A stretch of 64,000 nucleotides of DNA, from positions 1 through 64,000 of the forward strand of contig CALXNX010000001.1 in the NCBI GenBank assembly GCA_944389865.1, written 5' to 3'. Positions 51,994 to 64,000 of the stretch are shown here, one piece after another. The notes under the pieces were generated by a model. That model had not been told where the DNA came from. It was given only the letters and a program-made list of their open reading frames with translations, and did no database searches. Source of the stretch: an uncultured Succinivibrionaceae bacterium. Its GTDB lineage: Bacteria; Pseudomonadota; Gammaproteobacteria; Enterobacterales; Succinivibrionaceae. The position numbers and the translations under genes were made by a program. How positions within the stretch are numbered: the stretch's first letter is position 1; each line of letters opens with the position of its first letter.

Positions 51994-52926
51994 TTAACCC
52001 CCTAATAAGGAGAGGGCGATCTGCGGGCGCTGATTGGCCTGCGTCAGGATGGTCTGCGAGGCCTGCTGAATAATCGTATTCTGCGTTAAGGCGGCAGTTT
52101 CTTCCGCAAAGTCCGTATCGCGAATGCGCGAGCGGGCGTCCGACTGATTTTCCGCAATATTGGACTGATTGCGGATGGTTGATTCCATACGGTTCTGCAC
52201 AGCGCCTAAGTCTGCACGGCAGGAGTCCACCGCTTCAATAAACTTATCGATATTGGCCAGCGTAGTCTGCGCATTGGCCGTGGTAGATACCGAGAAGATT
52301 GGATTGTTCGGATCTGCATCGGTTGTAATTAAGCATTTGCCGTCATCGTAGGGCTCTTCACCGGCAGTATTCGTATCCACGCCTGTCAATTGCATCAGAC
52401 CGTTGATGGTAAAGCCGGCCGATAAGGTCACGGACAAGGTATCGTAAGCGTTCGGGCCTACCTGGAAGATCACGTCGCCGGAAGTGCCGATTAAGCCTTT
52501 GCCGGCACCGGCTAAGATCTGTTCGCCGGCGTAGGTGCTCTTGCAGGCAATGCGGGTGATTTCCTCGGAGAGCTGCTTGACCTCGCGCTGAATCGCCTCG
52601 CGATCCTTAGTGGTATTGGTGCCGTTGGCCGCCTGAATGGCCAGGGTGCGGATGCGCTGGAGCATATTGGTGGTTTCGTCCAGTGCGCCTTCCATGGTCT
52701 GAGCTAAGGCGATGCCGTCATTGGCGTTGCGGTTGCCCTGATTCAGGCCGTTGATCTGCGAGGTTAAGCGATCAGAGATCTGCAGACCGGCCGCATCGTC
52801 TTTGGCGGAATTGATGCGCAGGCCGGAGGCCAGACGCTGATAAGAAACATTTAAGCTGTTGGTCGCGTTAGTCAGCTTGCGCTGAGCATTAAGCGACGAC
52901 ACATTGGTGTTGACATAAAGAGCCAT
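51994..52926 (-). CDS. Flagellin (copy 1)
   Basis: Subunit of the flagellar filament. It has 310 residues: conserved N-terminal D0/D1 (NTNVSSLNAQRKLTNATNSL; LASGLRINSAKDDAAGLQIS), a short variable centre (about 145-215), and conserved C-terminal D1/D0 (DSCRADLGAVQNRM; FAEETAALTQNTIIQQASQ). The protein is identical to that of copy 2. It carries three Cys (about residues 126, 199 and 232), unusual for flagellin. GGGAG lies upstream of the start. A sigma-54-like promoter is at 53052-53068, giving a leader of about 115 bases with a 9-bp hairpin. Confidence 0.97.
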   Translation of the reverse strand: MALYVNTNVSSLNAQRKLTNATNSLNVSYQRLASGLRINSAKDDAAGLQISDRLTSQINGLNQGNRNANDGIALAQTMEGALDETTNMLQRIRTLAIQAANGTNTTKDREAIQREVKQLSEEITRIACKSTYAGEQILAGAGKGLIGTSGDVIFQVGPNAYDTLSVTLSAGFTINGLMQLTGVDTNTAGEEPYDDGKCLITTDADPNNPIFSVSTTANAQTTLANIDKFIEAVDSCRADLGAVQNRMESTIRNQSNIAENQSDARSRIRDTDFAEETAALTQNTIIQQASQTILTQANQRPQIALSLLGG

Positions 52927-53355: not shown

Positions 53356-54288
53356 TTAACCCCCTAATAAGGAGAGGGCGATCTGCGGGCGCTGATTGGC
53401 CTGCGTCAGGATGGTCTGCGAGGCCTGCTGAATAATCGTATTCTGCGTTAAGGCGGCAGTTTCTTCCGCAAAGTCCGTATCGCGAATGCGCGAGCGGGCG
53501 TCCGACTGATTTTCCGCAATATTGGACTGATTGCGGATGGTTGATTCCATACGGTTCTGCACAGCGCCTAAGTCTGCACGGCAGGAGTCCACCGCTTCAA
53601 TAAACTTATCGATATTGGCCAGCGTAGTCTGCGCATTGGCCGTGGTAGATACCGAGAAGATTGGATTGTTCGGATCTGCATCGGTTGTAATTAAGCATTT
53701 GCCGTCATCGTAGGGCTCTTCACCGGCAGTATTCGTATCCACGCCTGTCAATTGCATCAGACCGTTGATGGTAAAGCCGGCCGATAAGGTCACGGACAAG
53801 GTATCGTAAGCGTTCGGGCCTACCTGGAAGATCACGTCGCCGGAAGTGCCGATTAAGCCTTTGCCGGCACCGGCTAAGATCTGTTCGCCGGCGTAGGTGC
53901 TCTTGCAGGCAATGCGGGTGATTTCCTCGGAGAGCTGCTTGACCTCGCGCTGAATCGCCTCGCGATCCTTAGTGGTATTGGTGCCGTTGGCCGCCTGAAT
54001 GGCCAGGGTGCGGATGCGCTGGAGCATATTGGTGGTTTCGTCCAGTGCGCCTTCCATGGTCTGAGCTAAGGCGATGCCGTCATTGGCGTTGCGGTTGCCC
54101 TGATTCAGGCCGTTGATCTGCGAGGTTAAGCGATCAGAGATCTGCAGACCGGCCGCATCGTCTTTGGCGGAATTGATGCGCAGGCCGGAGGCCAGACGCT
54201 GATAAGAAACATTTAAGCTGTTGGTCGCGTTGGTCAGCTTGCGCTGAGCATTAAGCGACGACACATTGGTGTTGACATAAAGAGCCAT
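53356..54288 (-). CDS. Flagellin (copy 2)
   Basis: Encodes exactly the same 310-residue flagellin as copy 1. By eye the two coding sequences differ at one silent position (Leu/Asn-Ala-Thr region near 54232: GTTGGTC against GTTAGTC). Identity begins at the stop codon and ends at the start codon; flanks are unrelated apart from regulatory sites. This indicates recent gene conversion or selection for identity. Its leader is shorter (about 65 bases) than that of copy 1. The ribosome-binding site is AGGAG. Confidence 0.97.
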   Translation of the reverse strand: MALYVNTNVSSLNAQRKLTNATNSLNVSYQRLASGLRINSAKDDAAGLQISDRLTSQINGLNQGNRNANDGIALAQTMEGALDETTNMLQRIRTLAIQAANGTNTTKDREAIQREVKQLSEEITRIACKSTYAGEQILAGAGKGLIGTSGDVIFQVGPNAYDTLSVTLSAGFTINGLMQLTGVDTNTAGEEPYDDGKCLITTDADPNNPIFSVSTTANAQTTLANIDKFIEAVDSCRADLGAVQNRMESTIRNQSNIAENQSDARSRIRDTDFAEETAALTQNTIIQQASQTILTQANQRPQIALSLLGG

Positions 54289-57295: not shown

Positions 57296-57799
57296 ATGCG
57301 CCGCCCTTGCGTTCTTCTGACTTTACTGTGCTGCGCTGCCGCTTCCCTTGAGGCTCTGGCTGCCATCTCCCGGGAGGAGGCCTTAACTGAGGCTCTGCGC
57401 TGGGCTGATGCAGCGCGCAGTGATCTGATCACCTTTAAGATTGAGGCTGACGAGCAGAACGATGTTCCGGCCTATAAGCTTGAGTTTGAGACTAAATTCG
57501 GCGATTTTGATATAGTGCTGGCGCGCGCGGACGGACGTCTGCTCGATGCCGATGTCGAGCTTGAGGATGATTACGTTAAAAGCAGGCGCACTGGGCGTGT
57601 GCTGAGCGCAGCGCAGGCGCGTACTGTGGCGGCGGCAAAGCTTGCCGTACCGGCTCAATGCATTAAGCTTGTCGAGCAGGGCAGCCGCAGTCAGCCGCGC
57701 TTTGACGGGCGCTGCAGTACGCACGGCAGGGAATTTGAGTTTGAGCTGGACCGGCGCAGCGGCCTTATCAGTTCATGGAATATGGATCTTAAGAATTAA
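57296..57799 (+). CDS. Exported PepSY domain protein
   Basis: Small periplasmic protein of unknown role. It has 167 residues with a signal peptide (about 1-22, ending EALA) followed by two PepSY-like units, in which the pattern YKLEFETKFGDFDIVLARADGR is replaced here by shorter quoting: YKLEFETKFG and VLARADGRLLDADVE. The second unit has EFELDRRSGLISSW. PepSY domains often inhibit peptidases or bind partners at the cell surface. AGGA lies upstream of the ATG. It shares one base with the start of xseA. Confidence 0.78.
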   Translation: MRRPCVLLTLLCCAAASLEALAAISREEALTEALRWADAARSDLITFKIEADEQNDVPAYKLEFETKFGDFDIVLARADGRLLDADVELEDDYVKSRRTGRVLSAAQARTVAAAKLAVPAQCIKLVEQGSRSQPRFDGRCSTHGREFEFELDRRSGLISSWNMDLKN

Positions 57800-59217
57800 T
57801 GATGCTCGATGATTTAGATGAAAGCCAGGCCCTTACGGTCTCACGCTATGTCTCCATTACCGATGAAGTGCTGCAGCGCTTAGGCAGCGCAGTGGTGATC
57901 GGCGAGATCTCCGAGCTCTATCCGCGCAGCCATTTGTACTTTAAGCTCAAGGATGAAAATTCCAGCGTGGACTGCCTGATGTGGGGCAGTCAGGTCAGGG
58001 CACTGCCGTTCAAGCCTGAGCTGGGAATGCAGGTGATTGCCGCCGGCACCAGCTCTTTATATAAGAAAAACGGGCAGTTTAAGTTCCTGGTGCGCACGAT
58101 GCGCCCGGCAGGTCAGGGGCAGATCCTGGCGCGTCTTGAGAAGCTCAAGGCGCAGCTTGCCGCTGAAGGCCTCTTTTCAAAGCCCAAGCGCCAGGTGCCG
58201 CGCTTTGTGGATGTTGTGGGCGTGATCACCTCGCCTGAAGGGCGCGTGCTGCATGATATCTGCACCACTATCCAAAGACGCAATCCTTTAATTGAGGTCA
58301 AGCTCTATCCTGCAGCCGTGCAGGGCAGTGAGGCGCCGGCAAGCTTATGTGCTGCCTTAAAGCAGGCCTATGCCGAGGCTGCGTGCGATGTGCTCATCAT
58401 TGGGCGCGGCGGCGGATCGGCTGAAGATCTGCTGCCGTTCTCGGACGAGCAGGTGGTGCGCACAACTGCAGAGAGCCCGGTACCCATCATCTCGGCGGTA
58501 GGGCATGAGCCGGATACGGCGCTTACCGACTTTGCCGCTGATGTGCGCGCCGCTACGCCGACTGCGGCTGCGGAATTGGTCTCAAGCTTAACTGCTGCCG
58601 ATATCTTTGCAGTCTTTAATGACCTGGTGCAGCGCCTCGATAACGTCACTGCGCTGCACCTGGACGAAGCTGCGGCGCAGCTGGATAAGCTGCGCCTTAA
58701 ATTGGAGACGGCAGGTCCGCTGCAGCTTTTAGCGCAGCAGTCGGGAATGGCTGCCGCATTAGAGCAGCGTCTGCATCGGGCTGTCGATCAGGCGCTGCAG
58801 CAGCGGCGCACGCAGTTTGCCGGTCTGCAGCAAAAGCTGCTGCAGGTGGATCTGAGCGCTCAGTTAGGACGCATGGGAACTCAGTTAGGGCAAATGCAGC
58901 AGCGCCTGGAGCATCTTACTTATCAGCATCTGCAGCAGGCTGAAGCACAGCTGGTCACTCTGCACAAGGCGCTGGCCCGTCAGCCGGTCTTAGAGCGCCT
59001 GACCGCTGCCGATAAGGAATTGGAGCACGCGGCCGGCAGGCTCATCTCCTTAAATCCGCTGGCTATTCTGCAGCGCGGCTACAGCGTGACTTTAAACGAG
59101 CAGGGGCAGGCGCTCAAGGCAGGTCAGGCGCAGCCGGGGAGCGTCATCACGACTTTGCTCCAAGGGGAGCGCTTAACCTCAACGGTAAATAGTGTTCAAA
59201 AGCAGGAGCTGCCTTAG
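57799..59217 (+). CDS. xseA: Exodeoxyribonuclease VII large subunit
   Basis: Degrades single-stranded DNA with XseB in mismatch and damage repair. It has 472 residues. The N-terminal OB domain (about 1-105; GEISELYPRSHLYFKLKD) precedes the catalytic domain with IGRGGGSAEDLLPFSDE and SAVGHEPDTALTDFAAD. A long coiled coil (about 280-400) and a C-terminal segment NPLAILQRGYSVT complete it. The start is ATG at 57799 or the adjacent one at 57802. xseB is not in the window. Confidence 0.96.
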   Translation: MMLDDLDESQALTVSRYVSITDEVLQRLGSAVVIGEISELYPRSHLYFKLKDENSSVDCLMWGSQVRALPFKPELGMQVIAAGTSSLYKKNGQFKFLVRTMRPAGQGQILARLEKLKAQLAAEGLFSKPKRQVPRFVDVVGVITSPEGRVLHDICTTIQRRNPLIEVKLYPAAVQGSEAPASLCAALKQAYAEAACDVLIIGRGGGSAEDLLPFSDEQVVRTTAESPVPIISAVGHEPDTALTDFAADVRAATPTAAAELVSSLTAADIFAVFNDLVQRLDNVTALHLDEAAAQLDKLRLKLETAGPLQLLAQQSGMAAALEQRLHRAVDQALQQRRTQFAGLQQKLLQVDLSAQLGRMGTQLGQMQQRLEHLTYQHLQQAEAQLVTLHKALARQPVLERLTAADKELEHAAGRLISLNPLAILQRGYSVTLNEQGQALKAGQAQPGSVITTLLQGERLTSTVNSVQKQELP

Positions 59218-59320: not shown

Positions 59321-62300
59321 TTACTGCTCGTCAGGCAGCAGCTGGGCAATTAAATCTTGGCTGATGTAGACTGAATTTTCCTCAGGCGCAAGATCAAAGA
59401 TAGGCTCATCAAAATGCGCGTAGGCAAAATCATTGAGCATCTCTACCGCTACCGGGCAGGACATAAAGCGCGCGCTTAAGCACAGGCCGCTGAACTCATT
59501 TAAGTCCATGATCTCGCAGCGCTGCGATTTAATGCTCTTGAGCAGGTCGAGTGCATTTAAATCAAGGAGCGCGCATAAAGCCGCCGCCTTATCGCCAGGA
59601 TTTTGGGCAGATCCCTCGTCCTCTGCTGCAGGTTCGCAGGCGGCCGGCGCCGGACCGTCAGGCCCTAAGGCAGGCTGCGCTGCCTCTTTAGCGGCTGTAA
59701 CTGTCTGAGCCTCAGTTTCCGGGGCGCCTGCGGACAGCTCTTCTTCTCCATCAGCGTCCTGTTTGATTTGGCCTATCACATCAAGTACTTCCGAGCTTTC
59801 CTGCAGCTTGGATTTAATCAGGCTCTGATCTAAATGGGCAAAGTCCGGTGTCTTGGGCTTGTCCGGCCGCGTCAGGGCGAATAATTCTCTGCGGTTCAGG
59901 CTGAGCGCGGTAAACAGTTTTTCAAACTTCTTAAACTGCGCCGCCTGCGTGCCGCCGGAGAGCGCCATGCGTACTAAGGTCTTTAAGCGCTCTATGCCGG
60001 TCTGGAACTGCGTTTTTGTCAGCTGACTGCGATAATAGCGCTTGATCCCGCCCAAGGGCAGCTGATGATTGGCGTCGAGCATGCGCAGAAAAAGCTGATA
60101 ATACTGCAGGGCAAAGCTGCGCTGGTTTTTATCGGGCAGCTTTAACAAATCCACGATCTGCCGCATCGCGGCGGAGAGCACAGAAATGGATTTGCAGGCG
60201 CTCCAGAATAAATGCAGACTGAGCTGACCGCAGATCAGGATCTTTTTAAACTCGCGATCTTCCTTGACGCTCAGCGCGCTTAAGCCGTCCATGCAGAACA
60301 TCTGCGGCGAGGCGGCGCTGAGACTGCGAAAGAGCAGCGGATCATCGGGCAGGCAGTACACATTGGCTTTTCTTAAGATAAAGTCAAAAATAGGCTTGGA
60401 CGAGTACTTGGGGGGCAGCCAGAAGCGTGAGAGCACTGTATCAAGATCCATCGGCTTCTTTTTGTCAAAGAGCGAATTGAGCAGGGCTACATGATCGCTC
60501 GCTGAGGTTAAGGCCTGCAGAATGCGCGGATGCACCTGTCCTTTGGCGCTGTGAAGAAAGTCTGAGATCTCCTGATGCTCGGCAATCTTAGTTAAAAGTT
60601 CGGTATAGCCCTTGTCGTATTTGAGCGCAATCAGCGGCAGCTGCCCGTCAGCGCTGCGGCTTTTAATCATGGCGGTCGGCAAAAGGCGCATAAAGCTGTT
60701 GAACAAGGTGCTTTCAAAGAGATGACTGCAGTCTAAGAAATTAACCTCGTAATAGCATTTGTGCTGATCGTTGTCGGCCGCGTAGGTAAATAAAGGCGCG
60801 CCGCGCTCCTGCTCCATACTGAGGCACAGCCTGCTTAAAAGCGGCAGAAAAAGACTGCGTACCTGGCGATTTTTAAAGTCAAAATGCGCAGCATTGGCCA
60901 GGGGATTGGCAATGCTGATAATGGTGTAAATATAAAGGCCGACCACCTCCAATTCCTGTGGATCCAAGCCCTTTAACTGCAGATTACTGCGCCCCAGCAG
61001 ATCCTTGGCGTAAAAGGCCAGCAGCACCGGCTGTCTGGCTAAAGTATCGAGTACCAGTTCCGGCATCGGCTGCTGCTCGGGCAGTTTTTCACGGTACAGA
61101 ATATAAAAGAGCGTGCAGACCGTCGGCAGATCCGGACTGCACTTTAAAGTGCAGTCTGTAAAACAGCAGCAGATGTCGTTAAATATGCAGGTACAGATCT
61201 TGTCATATCCTGAAAGAAGCGGGCGCAGAAGCAGATAATGGTAAGTCAGCAGCGCTGCATAATCTATAAATACCTGATAGTCGCTGCGCGTGATAAAGGC
61301 GGAGGGCGATGCTGTAAAGGGCTCGCGGAAAAAATGGTGCTGCGCGATGTCATTGAGCGGCAGATCGACGGTTTCGCCGTCTGAGAAGATGAAATAAGGG
61401 TACAGCTGCTTTTCGTAAGCATCGCCGGTGATGATGGATAAAGAGTTCTCCAGCCTGCCGGGAGCCCTGCAGTTTAAATAGCTGAAGCATAATTTATCGG
61501 CGTGCGGGCACAGCGCAAGCAGATTAATTTCCTGCTTGAGATCGGCGCTTACCGCTGCGATCTCCGGCAAAGTTAAGCTGCTGTCAGCGCGCAGATGTGC
61601 GGCAATGGTCTGGATTAAGCTGAAGGCCTCGCTGTCGCCGGCGCTGCCGCTCCACGTGCCTTTCTGTACTCTCAGGGCTAAAAGCTGCGCTGCTTTATGG
61701 GTCTGCTGGGCCTTTTTTACGATGCTGCGGGCGCGCGGCTCAGCGGCTCTGTCGCTCAGCTCTCCCTCTGCCGGTTCATACAGGCGCGCATGGGCCGGGG
61801 CCAATTTTAAATAATTGGCGTTTAAGTCCTCAAACATGGGAAAGTGCGGATCAAAGCTCATACGCACCGGCTCGCGCGCGGCAATTTCGGCTAAATAGCG
61901 CACGATAAGCTGCTGTTCCGCCTGTTCCAGCGGCTTTAATAAATACTGCGCAGCGCCAAAATCAACCTTAAAGGCAGGGTAGCGGCATAAAAAGGTATAG
62001 CAGGCTTTAAGATAATTGGCCCCTTCAATCGGCAGAAGCAGATTGTGAATTAATTCGTTTAAATAGGTCAGCTGCTTGACGTTAAGCTCGCGGCGTGAAA
62101 AGGCGCTCAGGCCCTCCATGACGCGCAGCAGAATGTTGTAGTCGGCAAGCTTTTCCTGCATGCGGCTGACAAAAACCATATCGCGATTGCGCAGCTCGCG
62201 CCCGCTTTTAAGCAGGCTCTGCACATAGGAGATGTCCTCGTCATTGTGCAGATTGGGGCGCATGGTCAGCACTACTTCCTGATCAGGTGCCATGCCGACC

Positions 62301-62572
62301 GGGGCGGTAAATGGGGCTAATTTCAGGCCGAAATGCTCCAGCAGGCGGCCAAGTCCGGCGTAAATCTCCTGACTTTGGGCAGTAAAGCTGCGGCAGCTCA
62401 TATTGGCGGCATCAAGCTGCATGCGTGCGCAGATGTCCGTAATGGGCAGCATCATCAGACGGTGACTGCTGACTTCGGACTTAAGCTGATTGACGGCGCG
62501 CAGATAGGCGGCAGGCAGATCCTGCAGGCGGGATAAATAAAAGGAAGCAGGATGCAGATTATTGGCTGGCAT
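59321..62572 (-). CDS. Large TerB/TerB_C-like protein
   Basis: Function unknown. It has 1083 residues from the ATG at 62572, with AGGA eight bases upstream; a longer frame to 62707 has no such site. It is mostly helical. A TerB-like four-helix unit lies near residues 850-900 (RMALSGGTQAAQFKKFEKLFTALSLNRREL). An acidic linker (about 910-990) follows. The C-terminal segment (about 1000-1083; LNEFSGLCLSARFMSCPVAVEMLNDFAYAHFDEPIF, quoted here in parts: LNEFSGLCLSA, EMLNDFAYAHFDEPIF) resembles TerB_C. The first 800 residues are not recognised. It stands alone, without the helicase or ATPase genes that often accompany such proteins. Confidence 0.6.
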   Translation of the reverse strand: MPANNLHPASFYLSRLQDLPAAYLRAVNQLKSEVSSHRLMMLPITDICARMQLDAANMSCRSFTAQSQEIYAGLGRLLEHFGLKLAPFTAPVGMAPDQEVVLTMRPNLHNDEDISYVQSLLKSGRELRNRDMVFVSRMQEKLADYNILLRVMEGLSAFSRRELNVKQLTYLNELIHNLLLPIEGANYLKACYTFLCRYPAFKVDFGAAQYLLKPLEQAEQQLIVRYLAEIAAREPVRMSFDPHFPMFEDLNANYLKLAPAHARLYEPAEGELSDRAAEPRARSIVKKAQQTHKAAQLLALRVQKGTWSGSAGDSEAFSLIQTIAAHLRADSSLTLPEIAAVSADLKQEINLLALCPHADKLCFSYLNCRAPGRLENSLSIITGDAYEKQLYPYFIFSDGETVDLPLNDIAQHHFFREPFTASPSAFITRSDYQVFIDYAALLTYHYLLLRPLLSGYDKICTCIFNDICCCFTDCTLKCSPDLPTVCTLFYILYREKLPEQQPMPELVLDTLARQPVLLAFYAKDLLGRSNLQLKGLDPQELEVVGLYIYTIISIANPLANAAHFDFKNRQVRSLFLPLLSRLCLSMEQERGAPLFTYAADNDQHKCYYEVNFLDCSHLFESTLFNSFMRLLPTAMIKSRSADGQLPLIALKYDKGYTELLTKIAEHQEISDFLHSAKGQVHPRILQALTSASDHVALLNSLFDKKKPMDLDTVLSRFWLPPKYSSKPIFDFILRKANVYCLPDDPLLFRSLSAASPQMFCMDGLSALSVKEDREFKKILICGQLSLHLFWSACKSISVLSAAMRQIVDLLKLPDKNQRSFALQYYQLFLRMLDANHQLPLGGIKRYYRSQLTKTQFQTGIERLKTLVRMALSGGTQAAQFKKFEKLFTALSLNRRELFALTRPDKPKTPDFAHLDQSLIKSKLQESSEVLDVIGQIKQDADGEEELSAGAPETEAQTVTAAKEAAQPALGPDGPAPAACEPAAEDEGSAQNPGDKAAALCALLDLNALDLLKSIKSQRCEIMDLNEFSGLCLSARFMSCPVAVEMLNDFAYAHFDEPIFDLAPEENSVYISQDLIAQLLPDEQ

Positions 62573-62828: not shown

Positions 62829-64000
62829 TTAAGCCAACTTCTTGTTGATATCTAAAAACTCTTGATAACGCTCTCGCAGATACTGATGCAGCTTAGGATC
62901 CGGCTCAATCACCTGCATCGGCTGCAAAGTCTGCTTAATAGCATCAATATAGTCCTTATAATATCCAGCGCCCACGGCTGCGCAGATAGCAGCTGCTTTA
63001 CAGCCGGTCTGTTTTACGGAGGAGATTTCAACCGGTAAATCAGCGCAGGATGCGAACATCTTCATCCACGGCACAGACTTGGTAGGACCGCCGGTCATGC
63101 GGATAGTCTTCGCGTTCGGAGTAATGGCCAGCACTTTATCCTGATTCAAGGTATGTGAGAACACTATGCCTTCATAGATAGCATACAGCACATCCTTGAT
63201 GCTGTGATGAGCCTGCAGACCGTACATCTGAGCGTTCATGCCTACCTGATAGTTCGAGCCGAATAAATATGGCAGGTAGAACAGGGAGGTTGCCTTACGC
63301 TGTTCCATCACTTCATTGACATAAGCATTACAGTCATCAAGCGAGACTTGTGTAAGCAGATTATCCATCCACCAAGCCAGATTGGAGGCAGAGGTAGGAG
63401 AGCCTTCATGCACGAAGTATAATCCAGGAATGCAGAATCTGCCCCAGACATAATGATGCTGATGCTGCGGAATGGATTTATGTACTGCGGTAGCAATGGT
63501 CCAGGTTCCAGCGGCTGCACTGATGGCGCTGTCATCTATTACGCCTGATGAAATAGGGGCCGCTACCACATCAAAGAACCCGCCAAAGACCGGGGTGCCT
63601 GCAGCTAAGCCTAATTTTTCAGCGGCCTCTTTAGTGATTACGCCCGTCTGATCGGCAGAATCTACAATGGGCACTACCTTATCAACACATTCTTCAATAC
63701 CATAAAGCTTCATCAGCTCGGGATCATATGTACCGGTCTGCAGATTGTACATATTACTGCCGGAGATATTGGTTACTTCGGCGTTGAGCTCGCCAGTCAT
63801 GCGGAAGCGCACATAATCATGGATCATTAAAATAGCGCCGATCTTATCGTAATTCTCTCTTTCATGCTCTTTAAGCCAGCGCAGGATGGCGACTGGATGG
63901 GAGGTCCAAGTCTGCTGCATGGCAGAGGGATAAGACTTATCCGTAGTTCCGTCTTTAAGCCACTTGAGGACTAAATCTACCGAACGGGTATCGGAAGAGA
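62829..64000 (-). CDS. lyxK: L-xylulose kinase-like FGGY sugar kinase (5' end outside window)
   Basis: Phosphorylates L-xylulose or a related ketose. At least 390 residues are visible; the reading frame stays open to the window edge, so the N-terminus lies outside. Matches to E. coli LyxK run along the whole part: HPVAILRWLKEHERENYDKIG, quoted in part as HPVAILRWLKEHE, then MIHDYVRFRMTGE, FGGFFDVVAAPI, AAGTWTIAT, VHEGSPTSASNL, FLPYLFGSN (here YLPYLFGSN), AIYEGIVFSHT and RMTGGPTKS. The internal ATG at 63920 is not the start. Codon use is somewhat more AT-rich than that of neighbours, which may indicate acquisition. Confidence 0.88.
   Translation of the reverse strand, partial: SSDTRSVDLVLKWLKDGTTDKSYPSAMQQTWTSHPVAILRWLKEHERENYDKIGAILMIHDYVRFRMTGELNAEVTNISGSNMYNLQTGTYDPELMKLYGIEECVDKVVPIVDSADQTGVITKEAAEKLGLAAGTPVFGGFFDVVAAPISSGVIDDSAISAAAGTWTIATAVHKSIPQHQHHYVWGRFCIPGLYFVHEGSPTSASNLAWWMDNLLTQVSLDDCNAYVNEVMEQRKATSLFYLPYLFGSNYQVGMNAQMYGLQAHHSIKDVLYAIYEGIVFSHTLNQDKVLAITPNAKTIRMTGGPTKSVPWMKMFASCADLPVEISSVKQTGCKAAAICAAVGAGYYKDYIDAIKQTLQPMQVIEPDPKLHQYLRERYQEFLDINKKLA

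What the first reader, a model, noticed from the sequence alone, without database searches (positions are those of the whole stretch)
59321..62572. Solitary 1083-residue TerB/TerB_C-like protein with an unrecognised N-terminal 800 residues
The end of the protein resembles TerB and TerB_C domains, which in other genomes belong to multi-gene systems with helicases or ATPases linked to stress and possibly phage response. Here it stands alone between xseA and lyxK. Its long N-terminal part matches nothing I know. It is the best candidate for an undescribed system component in this window.
Basis: partly seen in the sequence, partly recalled or inferred. Interest (0 to 1): 0.6.

Follow-up and report, generated by a model that had tools for sequence, protein, structure and literature searches.

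The report
Displaced TerB subunit of scattered Shango
A seemingly lone 1083-residue protein in a gut bacterium looks like the heavily remodelled, relocated TerB partner of a Shango-type ATPase-helicase pair encoded elsewhere in the same chromosome; in this bacterial family the scattered trio appears to be inherited as ordinary core genes, which operon-based defence-gene surveys would overlook.

Summary
The ORF is real, but on the minus strand (62572-59321; ATG preceded by AAGGA). TerB_C at its C-terminus is confirmed: weak in the window protein itself, clear in relatives, 99.8% by profile comparison with SngA, the TerB subunit of the anti-phage system Shango. It is solitary only locally. The genome is a Succinivibrionaceae (genus near Anaerobiospirillum). 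It carries close SngB (BrxC/D ATPase) and SngC (DEAD helicase) homologues, as an SngA-less two-gene unit behind prmA on another contig. All 70 named GTDB sngB loci outside the family have sngA directly upstream; all 10 inside the family lack it. In genomes at least 90% complete, the TerB_C gene and sngB agree in 41 of 41 (36 both, 5 neither). The rpoB tree makes this one ancestral event, so it is not repeated co-loss. SngB in the family is one vertically inherited clade. The "unrecognised" N-terminus probably includes a winged-helix plus TerB-like module without TerB's acidic metal site; TerB_N and the N-terminal membrane segment are missing. Best reading: a dispersed, core-genome derivative of Shango with a fast-evolving TerB subunit. 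Physical partnership and anti-phage activity are inferred, not shown. New variant of a known kind.

The parts
59321..62572 (-). Gene for the 1083-residue TerB_C protein (SngA-like, displaced)
   Evidence: Uninterrupted ORF with SD-like AAGGA before ATG 62572; homologues in 46 of 56 family genomes
61787..62467 (-). Residues 36-262: conserved N-terminal module, predicted winged helix plus helical bundle, tentatively a degenerate TerB; acidic metal site absent
   Evidence: Profile alignment with SngA winged helix + TerB: score 32-35, probability 40-60%, 20 shuffled controls at most 20.2; AF2 pLDDT about 90; SngA's D and E (65/69 and 67/69) not kept
60506..61780 (-). Residues 265-689: fast-evolving helical region of variable length, no detectable relative
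   Evidence: Alignments A1/A4; no profile match to any SngA section; structure search gave only weak solenoid-like matches
59858..60505 (-). Residues 690-905: predicted winged helix plus helical bundle, possibly a second TerB-like module (weak)
   Evidence: Secondary structure of the AF2 model; collinear but non-significant alignment with SngA TerB, score 15-16, controls up to 18.8; whole-length profile alignment spans residues 661-1080
59333..59839 (-). Residues 912-1080: TerB_C domain (helix 916-940, disordered linker 940-991, winged-helix-like 992-1078)
   Evidence: Pfam TerB_C in 15/15 homologues; hhalign 99.8% to SngA TerB_C; AF2 pLDDT 92-97 over most of 1000-1080
57799..59217 (+). xseA (exonuclease VII large subunit), convergent neighbour at the shared location of the gene
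   Evidence: PF02601 E=1.4e-83; neighbour of the TerB_C gene in about two dozen genomes of the family
62829..64000 (-).
   Evidence: ORF list; assignment by eye, no profile search run

Best explanation
The protein is a strongly diverged SngA (TerB-subunit) homologue that works with the unlinked SngB ATPase and SngC helicase of the same genome, as a dispersed derivative of the Shango anti-phage system fixed in the core genome of most Succinivibrionaceae. Inferred mechanism: the TerB_C domain docks the protein on the SngB/SngC motor; the fast-evolving N-terminal and middle helical modules act as sensor or scaffold; on a trigger, presumably foreign or abnormally replicating DNA, the ATPase-helicase acts on that DNA. 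Shown: TerB_C homology, presence and intact reading frames of sngBC, loss of sngA from the sngBC locus, matching presence/absence, and vertical inheritance of SngB. Inferred: physical interaction, sensing role, anti-phage outcome. The TerB metal site is lost, so metal-dependent signalling is unlikely in this branch.
For: TerB_C homology to SngA: hhalign 99.8%, E=2e-28 for the domain; PADLOC SngA hit 2.5e-11. Partners in the same genome: PADLOC SngB 2.3e-178 and SngC 2.1e-220; Pfam BrxC_BrxD 2e-150 and DEAD 4e-32; side by side on G000:C56. Among 80 named sngB loci, 70/70 outside the family have sngA directly upstream and 10/10 inside lack it. Only one TerB_C-type protein is found in G000. In genomes at least 90% complete both genes are present in the same 36 and absent from the same 5; TerD does not follow this pattern. 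Family SngB is one clade with the same deep split as rpoB. SngA-like proteins found elsewhere in the class all sit with sngBC.
Against: The co-occurrence is a single evolutionary event in the rpoB tree (genera g4 and g10 branch outside), so it is not independent evidence of linkage. The two loci are about 0.93 Mb apart in G011 and 1.4 Mb apart in G065. TerB_N, the N-terminal membrane segment and the TerB acidic residues of SngA are missing. The degenerate TerB assignment rests on a 40-60% profile probability. No interaction, expression or phage data. TerB_C could serve another partner. Three genomes under 90% complete have one gene without the other (G063, G070, G073).
Confidence: 0.6

Rival explanations
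1. The trio does work together but has been recruited from defence to a housekeeping DNA-processing or stress role in this clade: it sits in fixed core positions (prmA-sngBC, xseA-TerB), is present in nearly all members, and has lost the sensor features of Shango.
For: Core, vertically inherited positions; loss of the TerB metal site, TerB_N and membrane segment; Shango elsewhere in the order is sporadic: two strong and one weak match outside the family.
Against: The TerB subunit evolves much faster than its partners (22-35% identity against 59-80% for SngB and 43-65% for SngC), more typical of an arms race or relaxed constraint than of housekeeping; the closest characterised relatives are anti-phage.
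Confidence: 0.3
2. The protein works with its neighbour XseA (exonuclease VII) in DNA repair, independently of SngBC.
For: Adjacent or nearly so to xseA in about two dozen genomes of eleven genera, in some Anaerobiospirillum-like genomes (g2) even after a change of relative orientation.
Against: Mostly convergent, so not co-transcribed; the adjacency is lost in many Succinivibrio-like genomes (g7) while the gene persists; xseA is also found in genera that lack the gene, so the adjacency fits an ancestral insertion site.
Confidence: 0.12
3. It is an orphan in decay: sngBC functions alone, and the displaced TerB protein is a relic under weak constraint.
For: Very fast divergence and length variation (about 1,020 to 2,200 aa); loss of several SngA features; in one genome (G008) both its gene and sngC contain frameshifts.
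Against: Long open frames kept across 12 genera; the TerB_C motif and the N-terminal module stay recognisable; found in all 36 well-assembled genomes of the clade that have sngB.
Confidence: 0.1
4. A tellurite/metal stress protein of the ter type.
For: TerB_C and TerB-like folds carry the Ter name.
Against: No TerD in this genome and TerD is uncorrelated in the family (10 of 54); the acidic metal-binding positions are lost.
Confidence: 0.03

Closest known systems
Shango (SngA-SngB-SngC), P. aeruginosa PA14 and E. coli
   Same: SngB and SngC homologues are close (PADLOC 2.3e-178 and 2.1e-220; L088 SngB 60-67% identical to most family SngBs); TerB_C of the window protein aligns with SngA's (99.8%).
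   Different: The A gene is unlinked, 1,021-2,197 aa instead of about 720-1,010, without TerB_N or a membrane segment, TerB metal site lost; fixed core genes instead of a mobile three-gene operon in defence islands.
TerB_C domain proteins (PF15615)
   Same: C-terminal domain present in all family members, with the 'E..ND..[YF]..[FV]D.P' motif.
   Different: A disordered linker of about 50 residues splits the domain; very long, fast-evolving helical region in front.
BREX BrxD + BrxHI modules
   Same: Similar ATPase plus helicase pair (BrxD 4e-45, BrxHI 5e-116).
   Different: SngB and SngC models score far higher; no BREX core genes were looked for.
Bunzi (TerB-containing defence system)
   Same: Named in the literature as another defence system with a TerB domain (PMC10952713).
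   Different: Not compared by sequence here.

Membership tests
TerB_C (PF15615) | TerB-C profile match | tested here: met
   15/15 homologues match, best 6.4e-20; window copy itself below cut-off (17.2 of 26.3 bits); hhalign 99.8% to SngA TerB_C
TerB (PF05099) | TerB fold in the protein | tested here: inconclusive
   No Pfam match at E<1 in 15 homologues; N-terminal module aligns with SngA winged helix + TerB at 40-60% probability, above 20 shuffled controls
TerB (PF05099) | Conserved acidic D(G)...E residues of both half-sites | tested here: not met
   SngA keeps D 65/69 and E 67/69 at site 1; family members do not keep them, E mostly replaced by Q
Shango | SngB-type BrxC/D ATPase in the genome | tested here: met
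   PDLC03959 2.3e-178, PF10923 2e-150; 46 of 54 family genomes
Shango | SngC-type DEAD helicase next to sngB | tested here: met
   PDLC03960 2.1e-220; adjacent to the main sngB in every one of the 19 family loci read that hold it, split by a frameshift in G008
Shango | sngA-sngB-sngC contiguous | tested here: not met
   10/10 named family loci lack sngA at sngBC, against 70/70 with it elsewhere
Shango | SngA with TerB_N domain | tested here: not met
   TerB_N 1.9e-41 to 2.9e-46 in three canonical SngAs; none in 15 homologues; no profile alignment
Shango | Hydrophobic N-terminal segment of SngA (observed here, not a published criterion) | tested here: not met
   50 of 69 SngAs have a hydrophobic 19-mer in the first 60 aa, 0 of 29 family members
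Shango | Anti-phage activity | not testable with these tools
   Published for PA14 Shango, 10-100-fold EOP change (PMC10250203)

The most novel reading that the evidence does not exclude
A whole bacterial family carries a domesticated, scattered anti-phage system: the Shango motor pair as core genes and its TerB subunit moved to another locus, stripped of its metal site and membrane segment and rebuilt with a large, rapidly changing helical region, perhaps a new kind of sensor.
Probability: 0.4. Interest if true: 0.75.

Novelty: new variant of a known kind. Interest (0 to 1): 0.55.

Why it matters
Defence surveys look for gene clusters, so a system whose parts are unlinked would be missed; here PADLOC models recognise the pieces but they do not lie together. 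It would be a clear case of a mobile immune system becoming part of a family's core genome, and comparing the minimal shared part (TerB_C plus SngBC) with Shango would help to find which part of SngA contacts the motor and which part senses.

Tried and rejected
Tellurite operon: no TerD in the genome and no correlation in the family. Pfam, NCBIfam and PADLOC on the N-terminal part: nothing. Sequence search of solved structures: nothing. Fold search of two AF2 models: no significant match; the C-terminal 90 residues give a weak winged-helix match to MukF/SarA (Z up to 7, within background), the rest solenoid-like noise. TerB_N: no trace; the genome-wide TerB_N search rang in no control genome, so it says nothing. 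A middle TerB-like module at 280-600: no support. First GTDB scan with the window protein alone: no relatives. Use of the presence/absence match as independent evidence: rejected, since the tree allows one event. The G017 rpoB row was a wrong frame and is ignored.

Full report
OBSERVATION. The finding's coordinates hold a single uninterrupted ORF on the minus strand (62572 to 59321, 1083 aa). The ATG is preceded by AAGGA, and homologue starts align with it. Homologues occur in 46 of 56 genomes of the same family, so the gene is real. The window genome therefore lies in Succinivibrionaceae, in a genus at or near Anaerobiospirillum; this is an inference from matching contig lengths and from the SngB tree.

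DOMAINS. TerB_C is weak in the window protein (17.2 bits, cut-off 26.3), but all 15 aligned homologues match it, best 6.4e-20. PADLOC's SngA model matches at 2.5e-11. With 69 SngA proteins as a profile, the C-terminal region aligns at 99.8% probability, E about 1e-28. No homologue matches TerB PF05099 or TerB_N PF13208, whereas three canonical SngAs match all three domains. The N-terminal residues 36-262 align along about 160 columns with SngA's winged helix plus TerB: score 32-35, probability 40-60%. Twenty column-shuffled controls reached at most 20.2. The acidic positions of TerB (D in 65 of 69 and E in 67 of 69 SngAs at the first site) are not kept in the family. AF2 with 25 homologues gives mean pLDDT 81 and pTM 0.51. 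By my reading of its secondary structure, there are a winged helix plus helical bundle at the N-terminus, a similar arrangement at 707-889, and a winged-helix-like TerB_C end. The second module has no significant profile support. Residues 265-689 have no detectable relative. No structure match is significant.

PARTNERS. Canonical Shango loci found here outside the family hold sngA, sngB and sngC in a row (5 of 5). A search with one of these SngBs finds a close homologue in 46 of 54 family genomes; the main copies are 56-67% identical. In the window's genome it lies on another contig, C56, with the helicase right behind it: PADLOC SngB 2.3e-178, SngC 2.1e-220. The main sngB copy was read in 19 family loci (L101-L114 and L116-L120). 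SngC lies beside it in all of them, in G008 split in two by a frameshift and in a few cut by the contig end. PrmA-like genes lie upstream, in most directly so. No SngA is there. The twentieth locus, L115, holds a second, distant SngB-like gene of G008 without SngC.

CONTRAST. Of 80 named GTDB loci with sngB, all 70 outside the family have sngA directly upstream, some as fragments at contig ends. All 10 of the family clade lack it; one of these, L159, is named only 'uncultured proteobacterium' but groups inside the family in the SngB tree. In single-contig or long-contig assemblies the two loci are far apart: G065:C1 352 kb and 1,764 kb; G011:C1 1,797 kb and 865 kb. So the separation is not an assembly artefact.

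PRESENCE AND ABSENCE. Among genomes at least 90% complete, the TerB_C gene and sngB are both present in the same 36 and both absent from the same 5, all of genera g4 and g10. Less complete genomes show three exceptions (G063, G070, G073). TerD gives an unrelated pattern. In the rpoB tree g4 and g10 group together, next to the other Enterobacterales and outside the rest. One joint gain or loss therefore explains the pattern, and it must not be read as repeated co-loss. Family SngB forms one clade (support 96) with the same deep split as rpoB, which speaks for vertical descent.

RATES. Identity of the window protein to selected orthologues is 22-35%, against 59-80% for SngB, 43-65% for SngC, 51-72% for PrmA, 30-58% for XseA and 66-92% for RpoB. 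The TerB subunit is the fastest part. Whether that is positive selection or relaxed constraint was not tested.

NEIGHBOUR. xseA lies beside the gene, or nearly so, in about two dozen genomes of eleven genera, mostly convergent, in some g2 genomes in tandem. In many Succinivibrio-like (g7) genomes the two are apart. This fits an ancestral insertion site; a functional link to exonuclease VII is possible but not needed.

MECHANISM. Most likely the protein is the displaced and remodelled SngA of a dispersed Shango derivative: TerB_C as the docking part for SngB/SngC, the rest as sensor or scaffold. Shown here: homology of TerB_C, presence and open frames of sngB and sngC, loss of sngA from their locus, and the distribution. 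Inferred: interaction, sensing and anti-phage outcome. Shango itself protects against several phages (PMC10250203); I found no mechanism for it in the papers searched. By the membership rule it is not filed as Shango: contiguity, TerB_N and the TerB acidic site were tested and not met.

LIMITS. I found no paper describing this, but only an open-access library was searched, most hits were seen as titles and abstracts, and no absence of prior description is claimed. Genomes are mostly drafts or MAGs.

Noticed in passing
L111:7726-8022, L112:7794-8111, L120:7676-7972: Small ORF of 98-105 aa between prmA and sngB in genera g11 and g5; the two g11 copies are nearly identical at the start. Unknown.
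   Followed up: no
RpoB in L229-L248: RpoB of the clade with the TerB_C gene is about 85 residues longer than in g4, E. coli and other Enterobacterales, with the alignment broken near E. coli residue 410-417: a possible insertion marking the clade.
   Followed up: partly
L049:8928-12074 and L112:9838-12056: In genome G008 both the TerB_C gene and sngC appear frameshifted (the first also contains masked bases); joint decay or draft errors cannot be told apart.
   Followed up: partly
L047, L055, L056 (G012): One genome has three TerB_C paralogues on different contigs.
   Followed up: no
L115:8584-9909: G008 has a second, distant SngB-like ATPase (44% identical to L088 SngB) without SngC beside it.
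   Followed up: no
L039, L040, L042-L044, L098, L208-L210 (genus g2): Homologues of 1,738-2,197 aa, and long XseA ORFs (up to 893 aa) in the same genus.
   Followed up: no
window 51994-52926 and 53356-54288, minus strand: Two adjacent flagellin-like genes (seen as L059 ORFs that cluster with flagellin-like neighbours).
   Followed up: no
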